A stretch of DNA of 64,000 bases, from positions 62,001-126,000 of the forward strand of contig CANKLE010000003.1 of NCBI GenBank assembly GCA_947483075.1. The letters are read 5' to 3'. Positions 3,597-61,843 of this stretch are shown here, in pieces (the stretch's first letter is position 1; each line of letters starts with the position of its first letter). The DNA comes from Flavobacteriaceae bacterium (lineage in GTDB: Bacteria; Bacteroidota; Bacteroidia; Flavobacteriales; Flavobacteriaceae). The position numbers and the translations under genes are program-made. The notes beneath the pieces are model-generated. The model had not been told where the DNA came from, did not search any database, and saw only the letters and a program-made list of their open reading frames with translations.

Positions 3597-4082
3597 ATGA
3601 AAGGACTATTTTTTTTATATTTTCTATTGCTACCGTTGTTAAATCAGCAGCTTACAGAAATTAGAAAAATATATCCCAATGCGGCAAACTCAGAAACAGC
3701 AGCCAAAGATTTGTCTGCTAAACTCTCTAAAATTACATTCGAAAGCGATAAAACTTTAATTGCTTATAAAGGGGCTTCCATTACAATGGTTTCTAAATTC
3801 AGCAAAAATTTAAGCAAAAAAATAACAAAGTTTAAAGAAGGAGTCAAATGGATTGAATTTGCGGTAGCTAACGATCCAAACAACATTGAAATTCGATTTA
3901 TTCGGTTGAGTATACAAGAAAATGTTCCTGTTATTACTAAATATAAAAAAAACATAAACGAAGATGCCGCATTTATTGCAACGCATTATAAGGAGCAAAC
4001 CGCCACGTTACGTGAGTATTTAAAAAACTTTATTTTGCAATCCAAAAATTTTTCAATTTTCGAGAAGCAAACCATCAAATAA
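3597..4082 (+). CDS. Small secreted protein of the polyene cluster, unknown
   Basis: A 161-residue protein with a short hydrophobic N-terminus (about residues 3-15) that looks like a signal peptide or anchor. The remainder is helical and Lys-rich, with segments such as LSKKITKFKEGVKWIEFAVANDPNNIEIRFIRLSIQ that resemble a single TPR-like helical hairpin. I recognise no enzyme family. Its 3-nt spacing from the dehydratase gene and 18-nt spacing to the glycosyltransferase place it firmly in the operon. Comparable small proteins occur at this position in flexirubin-type clusters. Confidence 0.65.
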   Translation: MKGLFFLYFLLLPLLNQQLTEIRKIYPNAANSETAAKDLSAKLSKITFESDKTLIAYKGASITMVSKFSKNLSKKITKFKEGVKWIEFAVANDPNNIEIRFIRLSIQENVPVITKYKKNINEDAAFIATHYKEQTATLREYLKNFILQSKNFSIFEKQTIK

Positions 4083-4100
4083 GACAATCAAGCACTAGAA

Positions 4101-5282
4101 ATGAGAGATACGTCAACTGAAATCGAACGAATCAATCAAGGGAACGTTTGTGTTATTATTCCAACTTATAATAATCACAAAACATTGAAGCGCGTTTTAG
4201 ATTGTGTCTTAGAACACACGACCCATATTATTGTGGTCAATGATGGCTCTACCGATGCTACTGCAGTTATTTTAGAAGATTTCCAACAACTAATTCAAAT
4301 TCACCACCCCAAAAATTCAGGTAAAGGAATCGCCTTGCGAAACGGTTTTAAAAAAGCTTCCGAATTGCAATACGATTACGTTATTACGATAGATTCTGAC
4401 GGGCAGCATTTCGCTTCCGATATTCCAAAATTTATAGAATCAATAGCAAATACTGGCGATGCGCTACTTATTGGAAGTCGGAACATGATGCAAGAAGGTG
4501 TTCCTAAAAAAAGCAGTTTTGGCAACAAATTTTCTAATTTTTGGTTTTGGTTTGAAACCGGAAATCGATTAGAAGATACCCAATCGGGCTATCGTTTGTA
4601 TCCGTTGCTGCTCATTCCGAAAAACTATTTCACCACAAAATTTGAGTTAGAAATAGAAGTCATCGTGCGTTCAGCTTGGAAAGGAATTCCAGTTAAAAAC
4701 ATTCCTATTCAAGTTTTATACGACCCAAGCGAACGGGTTTCACATTTTCGACCGTTTGTAGATTTTACTAGAATTAGCATTCTCAATACATTTCTGGTCA
4801 TAATTTCCCTGTTTTATATTAAGCCTAGAGACTTTTTTAGAAGCTTAAAAAAAAAAGGGGTTAGAAAATTTTTATTAGAGAATATTTTCGAAAGCCAAGA
4901 TTCAAATGAAGTCAAATCAGCATCTATCGCTTTAGGTGTTTTCTTCGGTATTGCACCTTTTTGGGGTTTTCAAAGTATTATTACTTTATTCTTAGCGGTT
5001 TTATTTCGCTGGAATAAAATTATTGCTTTTGCTTTTTCGAACATCAGTTTTCCACCATTCATTCCTTTTATAATCTATGGTTCTTTGCAATTGGGAAGTA
5101 TTTTCATTCCCAGCACTAAACATTTATCGTTAAATACTTCCCTTTCTTTTTCGGATATTCAGGAACATTTTAGTCAATATATTGTAGGAAGTTTTATTTT
5201 AGCAACAGTAATGTCGATCATTTTTGGACTTACAAGCTATTTTATAATGGTACTTTTAAGTACCTTTAAAAATAAAAAATAA
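4101..5282 (+). CDS. Family 2 glycosyltransferase with C-terminal DUF2062 domain
   Basis: A 393-residue fusion. The first ~230 residues are a GT-A domain of the dolichol-phosphate mannosyltransferase type: VIIPTYNN (18-25), VNDGSTD (46-52), and DSDGQ (98-102) as the metal/nucleotide-binding DxD-like site. From about 255 to the end there is a DUF2062 membrane domain (ALGVFFGIAPFWGFQS and further hydrophobic helices). It probably transfers a sugar from an activated donor to a lipid-like acceptor at the inner membrane. In the cluster it could glycosylate the polyene or its lipid anchor. The acceptor is unknown. Confidence 0.85.
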   Translation: MRDTSTEIERINQGNVCVIIPTYNNHKTLKRVLDCVLEHTTHIIVVNDGSTDATAVILEDFQQLIQIHHPKNSGKGIALRNGFKKASELQYDYVITIDSDGQHFASDIPKFIESIANTGDALLIGSRNMMQEGVPKKSSFGNKFSNFWFWFETGNRLEDTQSGYRLYPLLLIPKNYFTTKFELEIEVIVRSAWKGIPVKNIPIQVLYDPSERVSHFRPFVDFTRISILNTFLVIISLFYIKPRDFFRSLKKKGVRKFLLENIFESQDSNEVKSASIALGVFFGIAPFWGFQSIITLFLAVLFRWNKIIAFAFSNISFPPFIPFIIYGSLQLGSIFIPSTKHLSLNTSLSFSDIQEHFSQYIVGSFILATVMSIIFGLTSYFIMVLLSTFKNKK

Positions 5283-59663: not shown

Positions 59664-59823
59664 TTTAATTAATAATTAATAATGAAAAATGAAAAATGAA
59701 AAATGAAAAATTTGTGGTAATAAACAAACTAATTAATAGTGTGATTAGATTTTCAATTTGAATTTGAATGAATCTGCATTATATTAAAATTATTAATTAT
59801 TCATTTTTAATTTATAATTAATA
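59664..59823. repeat. AT-rich spacer with four tandem 7-bp units and an inverted AATTAATAAT
   Basis: Four copies of the unit AATGAAA occur in tandem at 59682-59709. A flanking AATTAATAAT (around 59676-59685) has an inverted counterpart ATTATTAATT near 59787-59796. No gene is present in this ~160-bp spacer between the phosphorylase and SUI1 genes. This type of spacer is recalled as frequent in Flavobacterium genomes. It may be slippage-prone. Confidence 0.55.
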
Positions 59824-60156
59824 TCAGCCTCCCACCCGTTTGGTTTTAAACCCTTTGGCTTGCAAAAACTGCATGATTTTATCGCGGTAATCGCCCTGTA
59901 TAATGAGTTCTCCGTCTTTAAAACTGCCACCTACTGCAAATTTGTTTTTTATTTCTTTGGCCAATAGTTTAAAATCTTCCTCATCTCCTTCGTAACCCGA
60001 AATCACAGTTGTGGGTTTGCCTTTGCGTTTTTCGTATTGACAGACTAATGGATCTTTTTGAATAAACAATTCATGGGGTTCAACTGCCTCATTTAGCATA
60101 TCATTGTTGGGTTCATGATCAGGAAATAACTTTTTGAGTTGCTCTTGTAAGTCCAT
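59824..60156 (-). CDS. SUI1/YciH-type translation initiation factor
   Basis: A 110-residue protein with the SUI1 fold in the C-terminal ~75 residues: KRKGKPTTVISGYEGDEEDFKLLAKEIKNKFAVGGSFKDGELIIQGDYRDKIMQFLQAKGFKTKRVGG. The invariant pattern GG-x(2-3)-K and the final KGF are present. The family helps start-codon choice. The N-terminal 35 residues are acidic. It lies 29 bp after the GxxExxY gene on the same strand. Confidence 0.88.
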   Translation of the reverse strand: MDLQEQLKKLFPDHEPNNDMLNEAVEPHELFIQKDPLVCQYEKRKGKPTTVISGYEGDEEDFKLLAKEIKNKFAVGGSFKDGELIIQGDYRDKIMQFLQAKGFKTKRVGG

Positions 60157-60185
60157 ATTTAATTATTCAAAAATAGAATTTCATT

Positions 60186-60584
60186 TTATTGTTTAATTCG
60201 TTTTTTTATATCATTAGTATAAATTTTTCTGACAAATTGCGGGTCATTTCCGAAATTTAACAATAACCCAACTTCGCATTCAGTGGATTTTAAATAGTTT
60301 AATAATTGTGCTTGATGAGATTCATTAATATATTCTACGCATTTTAATTCAACTATAACTGAATTATTTACAATAATATCCGGAATATATTCTCCAACAA
60401 CAACTTGTTTATAGTAAACATTTATTTTCTTTTGACTTTCTACCTTTAAACCTCTTGATTGTAATTCTACTATCATTGAATTTTGGTAAACTTTCTCAAG
60501 AAAACCATGTCCCATTTCATTGTAAACATCGTAATAAATACCTATAATAGTTTTAGTTAGCTCTTGATGAGGGAATTTCAACAT
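60186..60584 (-). CDS. GxxExxY family protein (predicted PD-(D/E)xK nuclease)
   Basis: A 132-residue protein. The name-giving motif is GFLEKVY (27-33). The predicted nuclease core has P68-D69 (YIPDIIV) and E79-L-K81 (VIVELKCVE), spaced like the PD...ExK of the PD-(D/E)xK superfamily, followed by the helical QAQLLNYLK. The family is widely dispersed in bacteria and uncharacterised. Three 93-bp repeats with hairpins lie immediately upstream. A role in maintaining or processing such repeats is speculation. Confidence 0.88.
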   Translation of the reverse strand: MLKFPHQELTKTIIGIYYDVYNEMGHGFLEKVYQNSMIVELQSRGLKVESQKKINVYYKQVVVGEYIPDIIVNNSVIVELKCVEYINESHQAQLLNYLKSTECEVGLLLNFGNDPQFVRKIYTNDIKKRIKQ

Positions 60585-60593
60585 ATAAATTTG

Positions 60594-60872
60594 ATTGGCT
60601 TATATTATTTATATTGAACACAGATTCGAGAAATATCAATGAATTATAAAAATTTCTCAGATTTCTTAAATCTGTGTTGCAATTCTATTGGCTTATATTA
60701 TTTATTTTGAAAACAGATTCGAGAAATATCAATGAATTATAAAAATTTCTCAGATTTCTTAAATCTGTGTAGCTATTCTATTGGCTTACATTATTTATTT
60801 TTAAAACAGATTCGAGAAATTAAAAATAAATTATAAAAATTTCTCAGATTACTTAAATCTGTGTTGCTAACT
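60594..60872. repeat. Three tandem 93-bp direct repeats with nested hairpins upstream of the GxxExxY gene
   Basis: Each copy starts ATTGGCTTA (60594, 60687, 60780). Units 1 and 2 differ at only four of 93 positions. Unit 3 is more diverged, with its middle changed and one base added. Each unit carries an outer stem ACAGATT/AATCTGT and an inner stem GAGAAAT/ATTTCTC. The array lies between the oxygenase stop and the GxxExxY start, so it forms the 5' region of the latter. No spacer-like unique sequence is present, so this is not a CRISPR. Confidence 0.9.
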
Positions 60873-60892: not shown

Positions 60893-61843
60893 CTATTTCT
60901 TTAATCCTAATTCCACCAATCGTTCTTCTAGATATTCGCCTGCAGAGATGTCCTCAAATGCTTTTGGATTTGATTCATCTATACATTGCGCTAAACAATT
61001 TAAGGGCATGTCGCTCACTGGGTGCATAAAAAATGGGATAGAAAATCGAGAAGTTCCCCACAATTCTCTCGGCGGATTAACCACCTGATGAATAGTCGAT
61101 TTGAGTTTGTTATTGGTATGACGCGAAAGCATATCGCCCACATTGATCATCAATTCGTCGGGTTGTGCCATTGCATCAATCCAGTCGCCGTTGTGATTTT
61201 GCACTTGCAAGCCTTTTCCTTGAGCGCCCATTAGCAAAGTAATTAAATTGATGTCGCCATGAGCAGCCGCACGAACGGCACCATCTTTGGGTTCATCCGT
61301 AATAGGAGGGTAGTGTATCGGGCGCAAAATGCTGTTTCCTTGCAGGATATAGCCATCAAAATAAAATTCGTCTAGTCCGATGTACAAGGCCAAGGCACGC
61401 AATACATAAATACCCGTTTTCTCTAACATTTCATAGGCTTTTTTTCCTGTTGAATTGAAATTGGGCAACTCCGAAACAGAAACGTTGTTTGGGTATTCGT
61501 GAGCATACTTGGAATCGGCATCTACATATTGACCAAAATGCCAAAACTCTTTTAAATCTCCGGCTGATCTTCCCTTTGCGTGTTCTTTTCCAAAGGAAAC
61601 GTAGCCGCGTTGACCGCCAATACCTGGAATTTCATATTTTTCTTTGACCGAAAGTGGCAAATTAAAAAAATCACGTACTTCTTGGTATAAATTGGCTACC
61701 AATTGATCGTCTAAAAAATGTCCTTTTAAGGCCACAAAGCCAATATCCTCGTAGGCTTTCCCGATTTCATTTACAAAATGTTGTTTACGTGCCGGATCAT
61801 CCGACAGGAAATCACGTAAGTTTACACTAGGTATTTGTTGCAT
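60893..61843 (-). CDS. 2-oxoglutarate/Fe(II)-dependent oxygenase (isopenicillin N synthase-like)
   Basis: A 316-residue dioxygenase. The iron ligands H195-x-D197 (AAHGDIN) and H252 (STIHQVV) and the 2-oxoglutarate-binding R266 in SRFSIP are present. The N-terminal region (IPSVNLRDFL, YEDIGFVALKGH) is typical of the plant-type 2OG oxygenases and IPNS. The substrate is unknown. It is transcribed divergently from the E1 dehydrogenase gene. Confidence 0.88.
   Translation of the reverse strand: MQQIPSVNLRDFLSDDPARKQHFVNEIGKAYEDIGFVALKGHFLDDQLVANLYQEVRDFFNLPLSVKEKYEIPGIGGQRGYVSFGKEHAKGRSAGDLKEFWHFGQYVDADSKYAHEYPNNVSVSELPNFNSTGKKAYEMLEKTGIYVLRALALYIGLDEFYFDGYILQGNSILRPIHYPPITDEPKDGAVRAAAHGDINLITLLMGAQGKGLQVQNHNGDWIDAMAQPDELMINVGDMLSRHTNNKLKSTIHQVVNPPRELWGTSRFSIPFFMHPVSDMPLNCLAQCIDESNPKAFEDISAGEYLEERLVELGLKK

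What the first reader, a model, noticed from the sequence alone, without database searches (positions are those of the whole stretch)
60186..60872. Predicted GxxExxY nuclease with its own 93-bp hairpin repeat array
Three direct repeats of 93 bp sit directly upstream of a PD-(D/E)xK-like GxxExxY gene. Each unit can fold into a nested hairpin with conserved arms, while the loop and tail vary more. The arms are kept in the most diverged unit, which suggests selection on the structure. A nuclease beside a repeat family it could recognise recalls RAYT/REP-type partnerships, where a processing enzyme spreads or maintains hairpin repeats. It could also be autoregulation by cleavage of its own leader. 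GxxExxY proteins have no established function, so this pairing is worth testing.
Basis: partly seen in the sequence, partly recalled or inferred. Interest (0 to 1): 0.7.

Follow-up and report, generated by a model that had tools for sequence, protein, structure and literature searches.

The report
Nuclease genes framed by word palindromes
A little-studied bacterial nuclease gene often sits between mirrored rows of short DNA 'words' that match its own protein subtype, in several bacterial phyla and two archaeal draft genomes, which points to an unrecognised kind of selfish DNA element that also leaves gene-less copies.

Summary
The array is real: three ~93-bp units (60588-60867) beside an intact GxxExxY (PD-(D/E)XK) gene (60186-60584, minus). 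It is not private to that gene: related palindromes lie at a dozen or more other places in the genome. The link to the nuclease is nevertheless real and wider. In the genus, 38 of 64 GxxExxY genes lie between inverted CRCRDAK words (CACAAAG, CGCAAAG, CACAGAT...), against 0 of 209 other genes. With the pattern fixed beforehand, 34 of 69 genes from other genomes have two or more words on each side, against 0 of 112; 32 of 67 without two loci that are really of the genus. Both arms carry the same word, and the word class follows the protein tree (2 changes; shuffles 22). At one chromosomal site, gene plus arms vary between species independently of the flanking genes. A sister species has the window's gene, broken, between arms of the type that the 93-bp units join without a gene. 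Best reading: a homing-like selfish element whose nuclease acts on its own palindromes. Cleavage and mobility are inferred, not shown. Four-helix-bundle genes use a similar layout with other words.

The parts
60186..60584 (-). GxxExxY (TIGR04256 / PDDEXK_3) nuclease gene, 132 aa, catalytic D, E-x-K and Q present
   Evidence: AlphaFold2 mean pLDDT 88
60588..60680 (.). array unit 1 (93 bp)
60681..60773 (.). array unit 2 (93 bp), 95% identical to unit 1
60774..60867 (.). array unit 3 (94 bp), most diverged
60617..60678 (.). palindrome in unit 1: AACACAGATT ... AATCTGTGTT (62 bp), words CACAGAT / ATCTGTG
60710..60771 (.). palindrome in unit 2 (62 bp), outer arms partly decayed
60803..60865 (.). 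palindrome in unit 3 (63 bp), outer arm partly decayed
60157..60185 (.). 29-bp gap between the nuclease gene and the SUI1 gene; no word here: the downstream arm found in several relatives is missing
59824..60156 (-). SUI1-family gene, downstream neighbour of the insertion site
   Evidence: site compared in 30 loci
60893..61843 (-). 2OG-Fe(II) dioxygenase gene, upstream neighbour of the insertion site

Best explanation
GxxExxY genes are the coding part of a minimal selfish element: one ~125-aa PD-(D/E)XK nuclease gene between inverted arms built of tandem ~9-12-bp words (consensus CRCRDAK upstream, its reverse complement downstream). The arms can face each other as a long imperfect palindrome with the gene in the loop. 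SHOWN: the anatomy, its spread over several phyla, identity of the word on both arms, the match of word class to protein subtype, and at one chromosomal site the joint variation of gene and arms independent of the flanking genes. INFERRED: the nuclease recognises its own word palindrome (as duplex, cruciform or hairpin) and cuts or nicks gene-less palindromes or a rival element. Repair from a DNA copy that carries the element then replaces what was there, as in homing. Loss of the gene between the arms leaves short palindromes, which are both remnants and targets; tandem duplication of such a remnant gives arrays. In the window a nuclease gene of a GAT-word clade has no downstream arm and stands beside three tandem gene-less palindromes of its own word type.
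For: Genus, 64 genes examined in 63 loci: upstream forward plus downstream reverse word within 150 bp in 38 of 64 GxxExxY genes against 0 of 209 control genes of the same loci; opposite orientation 1 of 64 and 1 of 209 (Fisher p = 1e-29). Exact word shared by both arms in 35 of 38, permutation mean 11.4, 0 of 5000 as high. Other genomes, pattern fixed beforehand: two or more words on each side in 34 of 69 against 0 of 112; 32 of 67 without L222 and L208. Word-free test (inverted shared 8-mers, two or more): 48 of 64 against 25 of 235 in the genus, 50 of 69 against 12 of 108 outside. Word class (..AT or ..AG) on a 138-protein tree: 2 changes for 103 labelled genes, shuffles mean 21.9, minimum 17; within the genus 2 against 9.9. 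Site between a radical-SAM/TRAM (MiaB-like) gene and a sigma-54 regulator: 29 elements with words CACAGAT, CACGAAT, CACAAAT or CACGGAT; arms share a word in 25 of the 27 that have words on both sides (permutation mean 11.3, 0 of 5000). The word needs 4 changes on the nuclease tree (null about 13, none of 300 as low) but 14 on the flanking-gene tree (null about 13, 274 of 300 as low); the same with doubtful labels left out. Other species lack the gene at the same site. Dose: 11 genomes without GxxExxY have median 0 (maximum 4) CACRGAT palindromes, 50 genomes with it median 4.5 (maximum 34), p = 2.6e-4 per Mb; CRCAAAG palindromes p = 1e-3; reversed CRCAAAG control p = 0.09. Window clade: 15 of 17 nearest relatives enclosed, 48 of 52 words end in AT. 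G143 has a broken, 76%-identical gene at the same site, with AACACAGATTTAAGAAAT upstream (exactly the start of the unit 1 palindrome in gene orientation; units 2 and 3 differ at one base each) and an arm ending AATCTGTG downstream. Fold: PD-(D/E)XK; catalytic residues invariant in 22 proteins.
Against: No cleavage, binding or transposition was tested. No target-site duplication was seen; element ends are defined by comparison only. Four-helix-bundle genes, with no nuclease motif that I know of, have a similar layout with other words (18 of 30), so the layout may not need a nuclease. 26 of 64 genus genes fail the CRCRDAK criterion and 16 of 64 the word-free one; of 12 more distant relatives of the window protein only 5 are enclosed by CRCRDAK words (10 by the word-free test). 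Direct shared 8-mers are enriched too (20 of 64 against 20 of 235; 27 of 69 against 5 of 108). Outside the genus, one word or more in the opposite sense occurs in 13 of 69. The word-protein match is weak at one word position (A or G at position 5 within the AG class: 12 changes against 16.2, 1 of 300 as low), and near-copies in the tree help any label to cluster. The window's genome itself has only 3 CRCAAAG palindromes although one of its genes has CGCAAAG-type words. Recent copying of whole gene-bearing elements inside one genome was not looked for. In the window itself the downstream arm is absent.
Confidence: 0.55

Rival explanations
1. RNA-level element, like the 23S rRNA intervening sequences: the arms pair in the transcript, placing the ORF in the loop of a stem that a host RNase or the GxxExxY protein processes. 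Spread is passive, by recombination of flanking DNA.
For: The layout resembles that of IVS elements: in Coxiella, terminal inverted repeats forming a 28-bp stem flank an S23 ORF (PMC4990558, passages seen). TIGR02436 four-helix-bundle genes here have a similar layout with other words.
Against: Gene-less palindromes lie in quite different intergenic places, for example between convergent gene ends in L058, L061 and L064, where a shared RNA processing role is not evident. Word class follows the nuclease, not the site.
Confidence: 0.2
2. Passenger model: the word palindromes are a MITE- or REP-like family moved by an unrelated enzyme or by host recombination. GxxExxY (and four-helix-bundle, GIY-YIG) genes are cargo captured between two copies.
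For: Several unrelated gene families sit between inverted short repeats. The same miaB-side site can instead hold a ~173-aa ORF between other repeats.
Against: Random capture does not predict a word class that follows the protein tree with 2 changes where 22 are expected, nor 0 of 30 four-helix-bundle genes with GxxExxY words. No Y1 transposase found in the window's genome; other transposase families were not searched.
Confidence: 0.15
3. Type III toxin-antitoxin-like or defence module: tandem repeats upstream of a nuclease make an RNA that restrains the enzyme.
For: In the window, three direct repeats precede a nuclease gene, as in ToxIN-type loci (recalled).
Against: Tandem arrays (period 30 or more) are the exception: 6 of 52 GxxExxY-side intergenic regions of 100 bp or more, 1 of 118 others. 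The general feature is inverted words on both sides. PADLOC gives only weak partial matches, to Cas4 and candidate-system profiles.
Confidence: 0.05
4. Coincidence: the array is an ordinary tandem duplication of a common intergenic palindrome that happens to lie beside the gene.
For: The palindrome family is dispersed in this genome.
Against: Cognate words accompany the gene at the same site in relatives; enrichment results.
Confidence: 0.05

Closest known systems
REP sequences and RAYT / TnpA_REP transposases (known to me from recall and from abstract starts in the listings)
   Same: One small enzyme gene flanked by palindromes; many gene-less palindromes in the same genome; here palindrome number goes with presence of the enzyme gene.
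   Different: PD-(D/E)XK nuclease, not a Y1/HUH enzyme (no PF01797 match). Arms are tandem 9-12-bp words that differ between subtypes.
23S rRNA intervening sequences (IVS) with S23 ORF
   Same: A small ORF between complementary termini that can form a stem; called a selfish genetic element (PMC4990558, abstract start, passages).
   Different: The window element lies between protein genes; its ORF is a nuclease; arms are tandem words with gene-less derivatives.
Homing endonucleases, including the PD-(D/E)XK type (I-Ssp6803I, recalled)
   Same: Small nuclease gene at a fixed site, present or absent between relatives, with a history unlike its flanks.
   Different: No intron or intein seen around it; the gene lies between inverted arms. 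Cleavage of the empty site untested.
Insertion sequences and MITEs
   Same: Inverted ends and short gene-less forms.
   Different: The only reading frame between the arms is the nuclease; no target-site duplication seen.

Membership tests
GxxExxY protein family (TIGR04256) | HMM score over the curated cut-off | tested here: met
   138.8 bits against 35
PD-(D/E)XK nuclease superfamily | D ... E-x-K (Q) active site in an alpha/beta core | tested here: met
   PF13366 142.6 bits; D, E-x-K and Q invariant in 22 proteins; model pLDDT 88; PD-(D/E)XK structures at the top of a weak Foldseek list, best E 1.1e-3
REP/RAYT | Y1 (HUH) transposase gene of the RAYT type in the genome | tested here: not met
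   no PF01797 match in the window's genome
REP/RAYT | palindromic extragenic repeats in many copies | tested here: met
   54 BLAST matches at E up to 10, including the 3 window units and both-strand matches of one place; 17 exact palindromes, 0 with the reversed control pattern
REP/RAYT | conserved GTAG or CGTC tag at the foot of the hairpin | not tested
   tag known from the title of PMC3733652 in a search listing; no count made
Homing endonuclease element | enzyme cuts the empty allele at the insertion site | not testable with these tools
   needs a cleavage assay
Homing endonuclease element | present and absent alleles at one site; history of the element differs from its flanks | tested here: met
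23S rRNA IVS | insertion inside the 23S rRNA gene with S23 (four-helix-bundle) ORF | tested here: not met
   window element lies between dioxygenase and SUI1 genes and encodes a nuclease
23S rRNA IVS | ORF between complementary terminal arms | tested here: met
   for the family; the window copy lacks its downstream arm
Insertion sequence / MITE | transposase gene and target-site duplication | tested here: inconclusive
   only the nuclease ORF lies between the arms; no duplication seen by eye at the compared site, not searched for systematically
Type III toxin-antitoxin | tandem repeat array upstream of an endoribonuclease gene | tested here: not met
   met in form by the window copy, but not a family feature: arrays in 6 of 52 GxxExxY-side intergenic regions of 100 bp or more, on either side of the gene; inverted words on both sides are commoner. 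RNA cleavage not tested

The most novel reading that the evidence does not exclude
GxxExxY elements are the best-marked members of a so far unnamed class of minimal selfish elements. In it a single small nucleic-acid protein (PD-(D/E)XK nuclease, four-helix-bundle protein, perhaps GIY-YIG) is framed by inverted arrays of short words that this protein reads. The word is the element's identity tag; the proteins diversify their word specificity, replace one another at fixed sites, and seed genomes with gene-less palindromes, which would explain a large share of the short intergenic palindromes in Bacteroidota and other phyla.
Probability: 0.35. Interest if true: 0.92.

Novelty: new variant of a known kind. 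Interest (0 to 1): 0.8.

Why it matters
I know of no established function for the GxxExxY family; 50 of 61 genomes sampled in this genus carry 1 to 9 copies. The data give it a concrete, testable substrate: the word palindrome around each gene. Natural variation at one site supplies matched enzyme-word pairs (CACAGAT, CACGAAT, CACAAAT, CACGGAT) for a specificity assay. It would also explain where many short intergenic palindromes come from and offer a compact nuclease-word code. Two full-text searches for the family found 2 papers holding 'GxxExxY' and 1 holding PF13366 or PDDEXK_3; I saw only their listings, and none is about this pairing by title or abstract start. A search on Flavobacterium with repeat terms gave one plasmid paper (listing). 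Most subscription journals and all bioRxiv preprints are outside that library.

Tried and rejected
RAYT partner: rejected, no PF01797 match in the genome. Rfam: nothing at the array; the only match was a chance-like TYMV_upPK hit at 59904-59926 below its gathering score. Function from a solved relative: none by sequence better than E 0.054; Foldseek best E 1.1e-3, 0 of 421 listed matches at E <= 0.001, so the fold is clear but the function is not. The weak Phage_endo_I match (PF05367, 22 bits, under its cut-off) hinted at a junction-resolving enzyme; T7 endonuclease I appears only at E 0.42, so I do not rely on it. Phage or plasmid vehicle: 0 of 50,697 phage records and 8 of 72,556 plasmid records match one GxxExxY query (L103, E <= 1e-5). 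Selection on folding inside the array: not supported.

Caveats on the tests. The word pattern CRCRDAK came from my recall of common intergenic repeats plus inspection of the genus loci, so one search is not independent; one search used it unchanged on loci not seen before, except that L222 has the same protein as genus locus L107 and L208 falls in the genus clade of the tree, so both are probably genus loci; without them the counts are 32 of 67 (two words or more), 42 of 67 (one or more) and 48 of 67 (word-free). Many of these records are metagenome bins whose names may be wrong for a given contig. The miaB-side set is the 30 best-scoring loci of a 150-genome search with an occupied site as query, so it is chosen for occupied sites. 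In one search I set the label of L328 by hand (a tie between two words); with the computed label the counts are 5 and 15 changes, without L328 4 and 14, without four doubtful rows 3 and 12 (nuclease tree and flank tree). Dropped rows: L196 (no ORF), proteins outside the length limits and genes with fewer than two words or no clear majority (35 of 138 proteins unlabelled for the AT/AG class), L329 (incomplete), 4 of 30 GIY-YIG loci (3 without an ORF, 1 long).

Full report
1. Observation. The window is G000:C3:62001-126000 of a 2.4-Mb genome in 25 contigs. Gene 60186-60584 (-) is a GxxExxY protein (138.8 bits, cut-off 35; PF13366). Three direct units of 93-94 bp fill 60588-60867. Each holds a 62-63-bp imperfect palindrome, AACACAGATT...AATCTGTGTT in unit 1. 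Only unit 1 folds clearly better than its shuffles, and the arm changes in units 2 and 3 are uncompensated.

2. The repeat is not private. BLAST with unit 1 gave 54 matches at E up to 10 in the genome, including the three window units and some places matched on both strands. Other copies lie at a dozen or more places on contigs C1, C2, C3, C4, C6, C7, C8, C10, C18, C22 and C23, as single 60-70-bp palindromes or as local arrays of period 110, 113, 119 or 169. An exact palindrome pattern finds 17 in this genome and 0 with the reversed pattern. The genome has three GxxExxY genes. The other two also have repeats: the C13 gene follows a different repeat stretch with CTTTGCG words, and the C1 gene has CACGAAT words on both sides.

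3. The gene sits between inverted words. I fetched 60 GxxExxY loci from the genus and added the three own ones. Upstream words read CACAAAG, CGCAAAG, CACAGAT, CGCAGAT, CACGGAT or CACATAG at about 10-bp steps; downstream are their reverse complements. Example L116: gcCACGGATtaaaagattaaCACGGATttcaat [gene] ttaATCCGTGaaaatcctttaATCCGTGgc. With the pattern CRCRDAK, 38 of 64 genes are enclosed against 0 of 209 control genes in the same loci; 1 of 64 in the opposite sense. In 35 of 38 an exact word is on both sides (permutation mean 11.4; 0 of 5000).

4. Out of sample. With the same pattern I tested 80 loci from named genomes; 69 are not titled Flavobacterium and have an ORF. Two or more words on each side: 34 of 69 against 0 of 112 controls; reverse sense 3 of 69. 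One word or more on each side: 44 of 69 against 8 of 112; reverse 13 of 69 and 3 of 112. Without two loci that are probably of the genus: 32 of 67 and 42 of 67. By record title the 34 include Bacteroidota, Cyanobacteria, Planctomycetota, Chloroflexi, Nitrospiria, Desulfobacteraceae and two Methanosarcinales draft genomes. A word-free test (two or more shared inverted 8-mers) gives 50 of 69 against 12 of 108, and 48 of 64 against 25 of 235 in the genus; direct shared 8-mers are enriched as well, less strongly in the genus (20 of 64 against 20 of 235; 27 of 69 against 5 of 108). Some genes have other words (for example TTTCGTG or CAGGAT types, seen), so the CRCRDAK counts are probably low.

5. 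Word and protein go together. On a tree of 138 GxxExxY proteins the word class (ending AT or AG) needs 2 changes among 103 labelled genes; shuffles average 21.9 and never fall below 17 in 300. The full 7-mer needs 29 against 57. Within the genus alone it is 2 against 9.9. The fifth base of the word within the AG class follows the tree only weakly (12 against 16.2). The alignment is short (130 columns), many forks are open, and near-copies help any label to cluster. The window's protein falls in a clade with AT words; of its 17 nearest fetched relatives 15 are enclosed and 48 of 52 words end in AT; of 12 more distant ones 5 are enclosed.

6. One site, many elements. Between a radical-SAM/TRAM (MiaB-like) gene and a sigma-54 regulator, 29 of the 30 best loci of a 150-genome search could be read, each with a GxxExxY element. 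Words differ between species, but the arms share a word in 25 of the 27 with words on both sides (permutation mean 11.3; 0 of 5000). The word needs 4 changes on the nuclease tree (null 13.3, 0 of 300 as low) and 14 on the flank tree (null 13.1; 274 of 300 as low); leaving out doubtful labels gives 3 and 12. So the word follows the nuclease and ignores the flanking genes. Near relatives such as L319 and L331 share the outer flanks (...TTTTTTTGC and GGCAAA...AATAyAAGCC) and differ between them. Of 20 further species fetched, some have only a short gap (L344, L345: 32 and 24 bp printed, flanking bases included), some hold other repeats without a gene (L333-L336), and L337-L343 hold a 171- to 173-aa ORF, in several of them beside TTTCAGGT/TTTCAAGT repeats.

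7. The window's own site. Of 30 dioxygenase loci in relatives, 9 have the nuclease gene (own included, L298 broken), 18 have dioxygenase and SUI1 without it, and 3 have neither the nuclease nor a SUI1 hit in reach (my reading). In all eight others that have it, GAT-type words are present on at least one side in the printed ends. L288 (71% identical protein) has one palindrome upstream that starts CACAGATttaagaaat; L291 has its own repeated CGCGGAT units. In G143 (L244) a broken, 76%-identical gene (3 stops) lies at the same site with AACACAGATTTAAGAAAT upstream and ATTTCTTAAATATCTCCAATCTGTG downstream. AACACAGATTTAAGAAAT is exactly the start of the unit 1 palindrome in gene orientation; units 2 and 3 differ from it at one base each. 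The units are thus best read as the two arms without the gene.

8. Dose. In the 61 genus genomes, 11 have no GxxExxY gene. They hold a median of 0 (maximum 4) CACRGATT palindromes against 4.5 (maximum 34) in the 50 with the gene (p = 2.6e-4 per Mb), and a median of 1 (maximum 4) CRCAAAG palindromes against 5.5 (maximum 122) (p = 1e-3). The reversed CRCAAAG control gives p = 0.09. Limited to genomes up to 4.2 Mb: p = 0.001 and 0.011. Kinship is not corrected for, and nested matches are counted more than once.

9. Enzyme. The active site D, E-x-K and Q is invariant in 22 proteins. AlphaFold2 gives a PD-(D/E)XK model (pLDDT 88); Foldseek lists restriction-endonuclease-like, exonuclease and splicing-endonuclease folds, none at E <= 0.001. 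DNA or RNA as substrate is open.

10. A wider class. Of 30 four-helix-bundle genes (TIGR02436), none is enclosed by the GxxExxY words but 18 share two or more inverted 8-mers, of other words such as TTAGACTTCTTAGACT (7 share direct ones). I recall that this family includes the S23 ORF of 23S rRNA intervening sequences, whose ORF lies between complementary ends (PMC4990558, passages). GIY-YIG genes often lie beside repeats too: 17 of 26 with inverted and 18 of 26 with direct shared 8-mers.

11. Verdict. Mechanism (word-specific cutting and homing) is my inference at about 0.55; that gene and arms form one co-inherited unit I hold at well above 0.9.

Noticed in passing
L353-L382 (e.g. L358, L367, L375): Four-helix-bundle (TIGR02436) genes are often framed by inverted arrays of their own short words (TTAGACTTC, AAGTTTCTAAG, TAAGGGATTAGGGA, GTTAACGGTTAAC): 18 of 30 by the 8-mer test; none of the 30 carries GxxExxY words on both sides.
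   Followed up: partly
L062:356-661 (G000:C22) with array at L062:83-363; L383-L412: Small GIY-YIG genes also stand beside hairpin repeats (e.g. TCTCGACTGCGCTCGAC... TGACA); the window's genome has one right after a 114-bp tandem array.
   Followed up: partly
L401 (tRNA-Ala 1361-1435), L410 (tRNA-Met 2137-2210), L387 (tRNA-Met 293-366): Some GIY-YIG genes lie just behind a tRNA gene and are followed by a second copy of the tRNA 3' end, as if inserted at the tRNA gene with duplication of its end.
   Followed up: partly
L337-L343: At the miaB-side site a 171- to 173-aa ORF of unknown kind takes the place of the GxxExxY gene, in several species beside TTTCAGGT/TTTCAAGT words and AACCTGAAACCTGAAAC.
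   Followed up: no
L054, L056, L057, L060 (ends of contigs C7, C6, C3, C18): Four contigs of the assembly end inside repeats of the CACAGAT palindrome family, so real array copy numbers may be higher.
   Followed up: no
window 59667-59711 and 59787-59823: A 7-bp AATGAAA tandem repeat and an inverted partner lie in the gap between the phosphorylase-like and SUI1 genes: another palindrome without a gene.
   Followed up: no
L107, 3' side of the minus-strand gene at 3989-4366: The repeat beside this GxxExxY gene includes what reads as the gene's last codons, so arrays can arise by duplication across the element's end.
   Followed up: no
G000:C22 9280-9976 (L062): CACAGAT-type and CACGAAT-type palindromes alternate in one stretch, so different word families can sit in tandem.
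   Followed up: no
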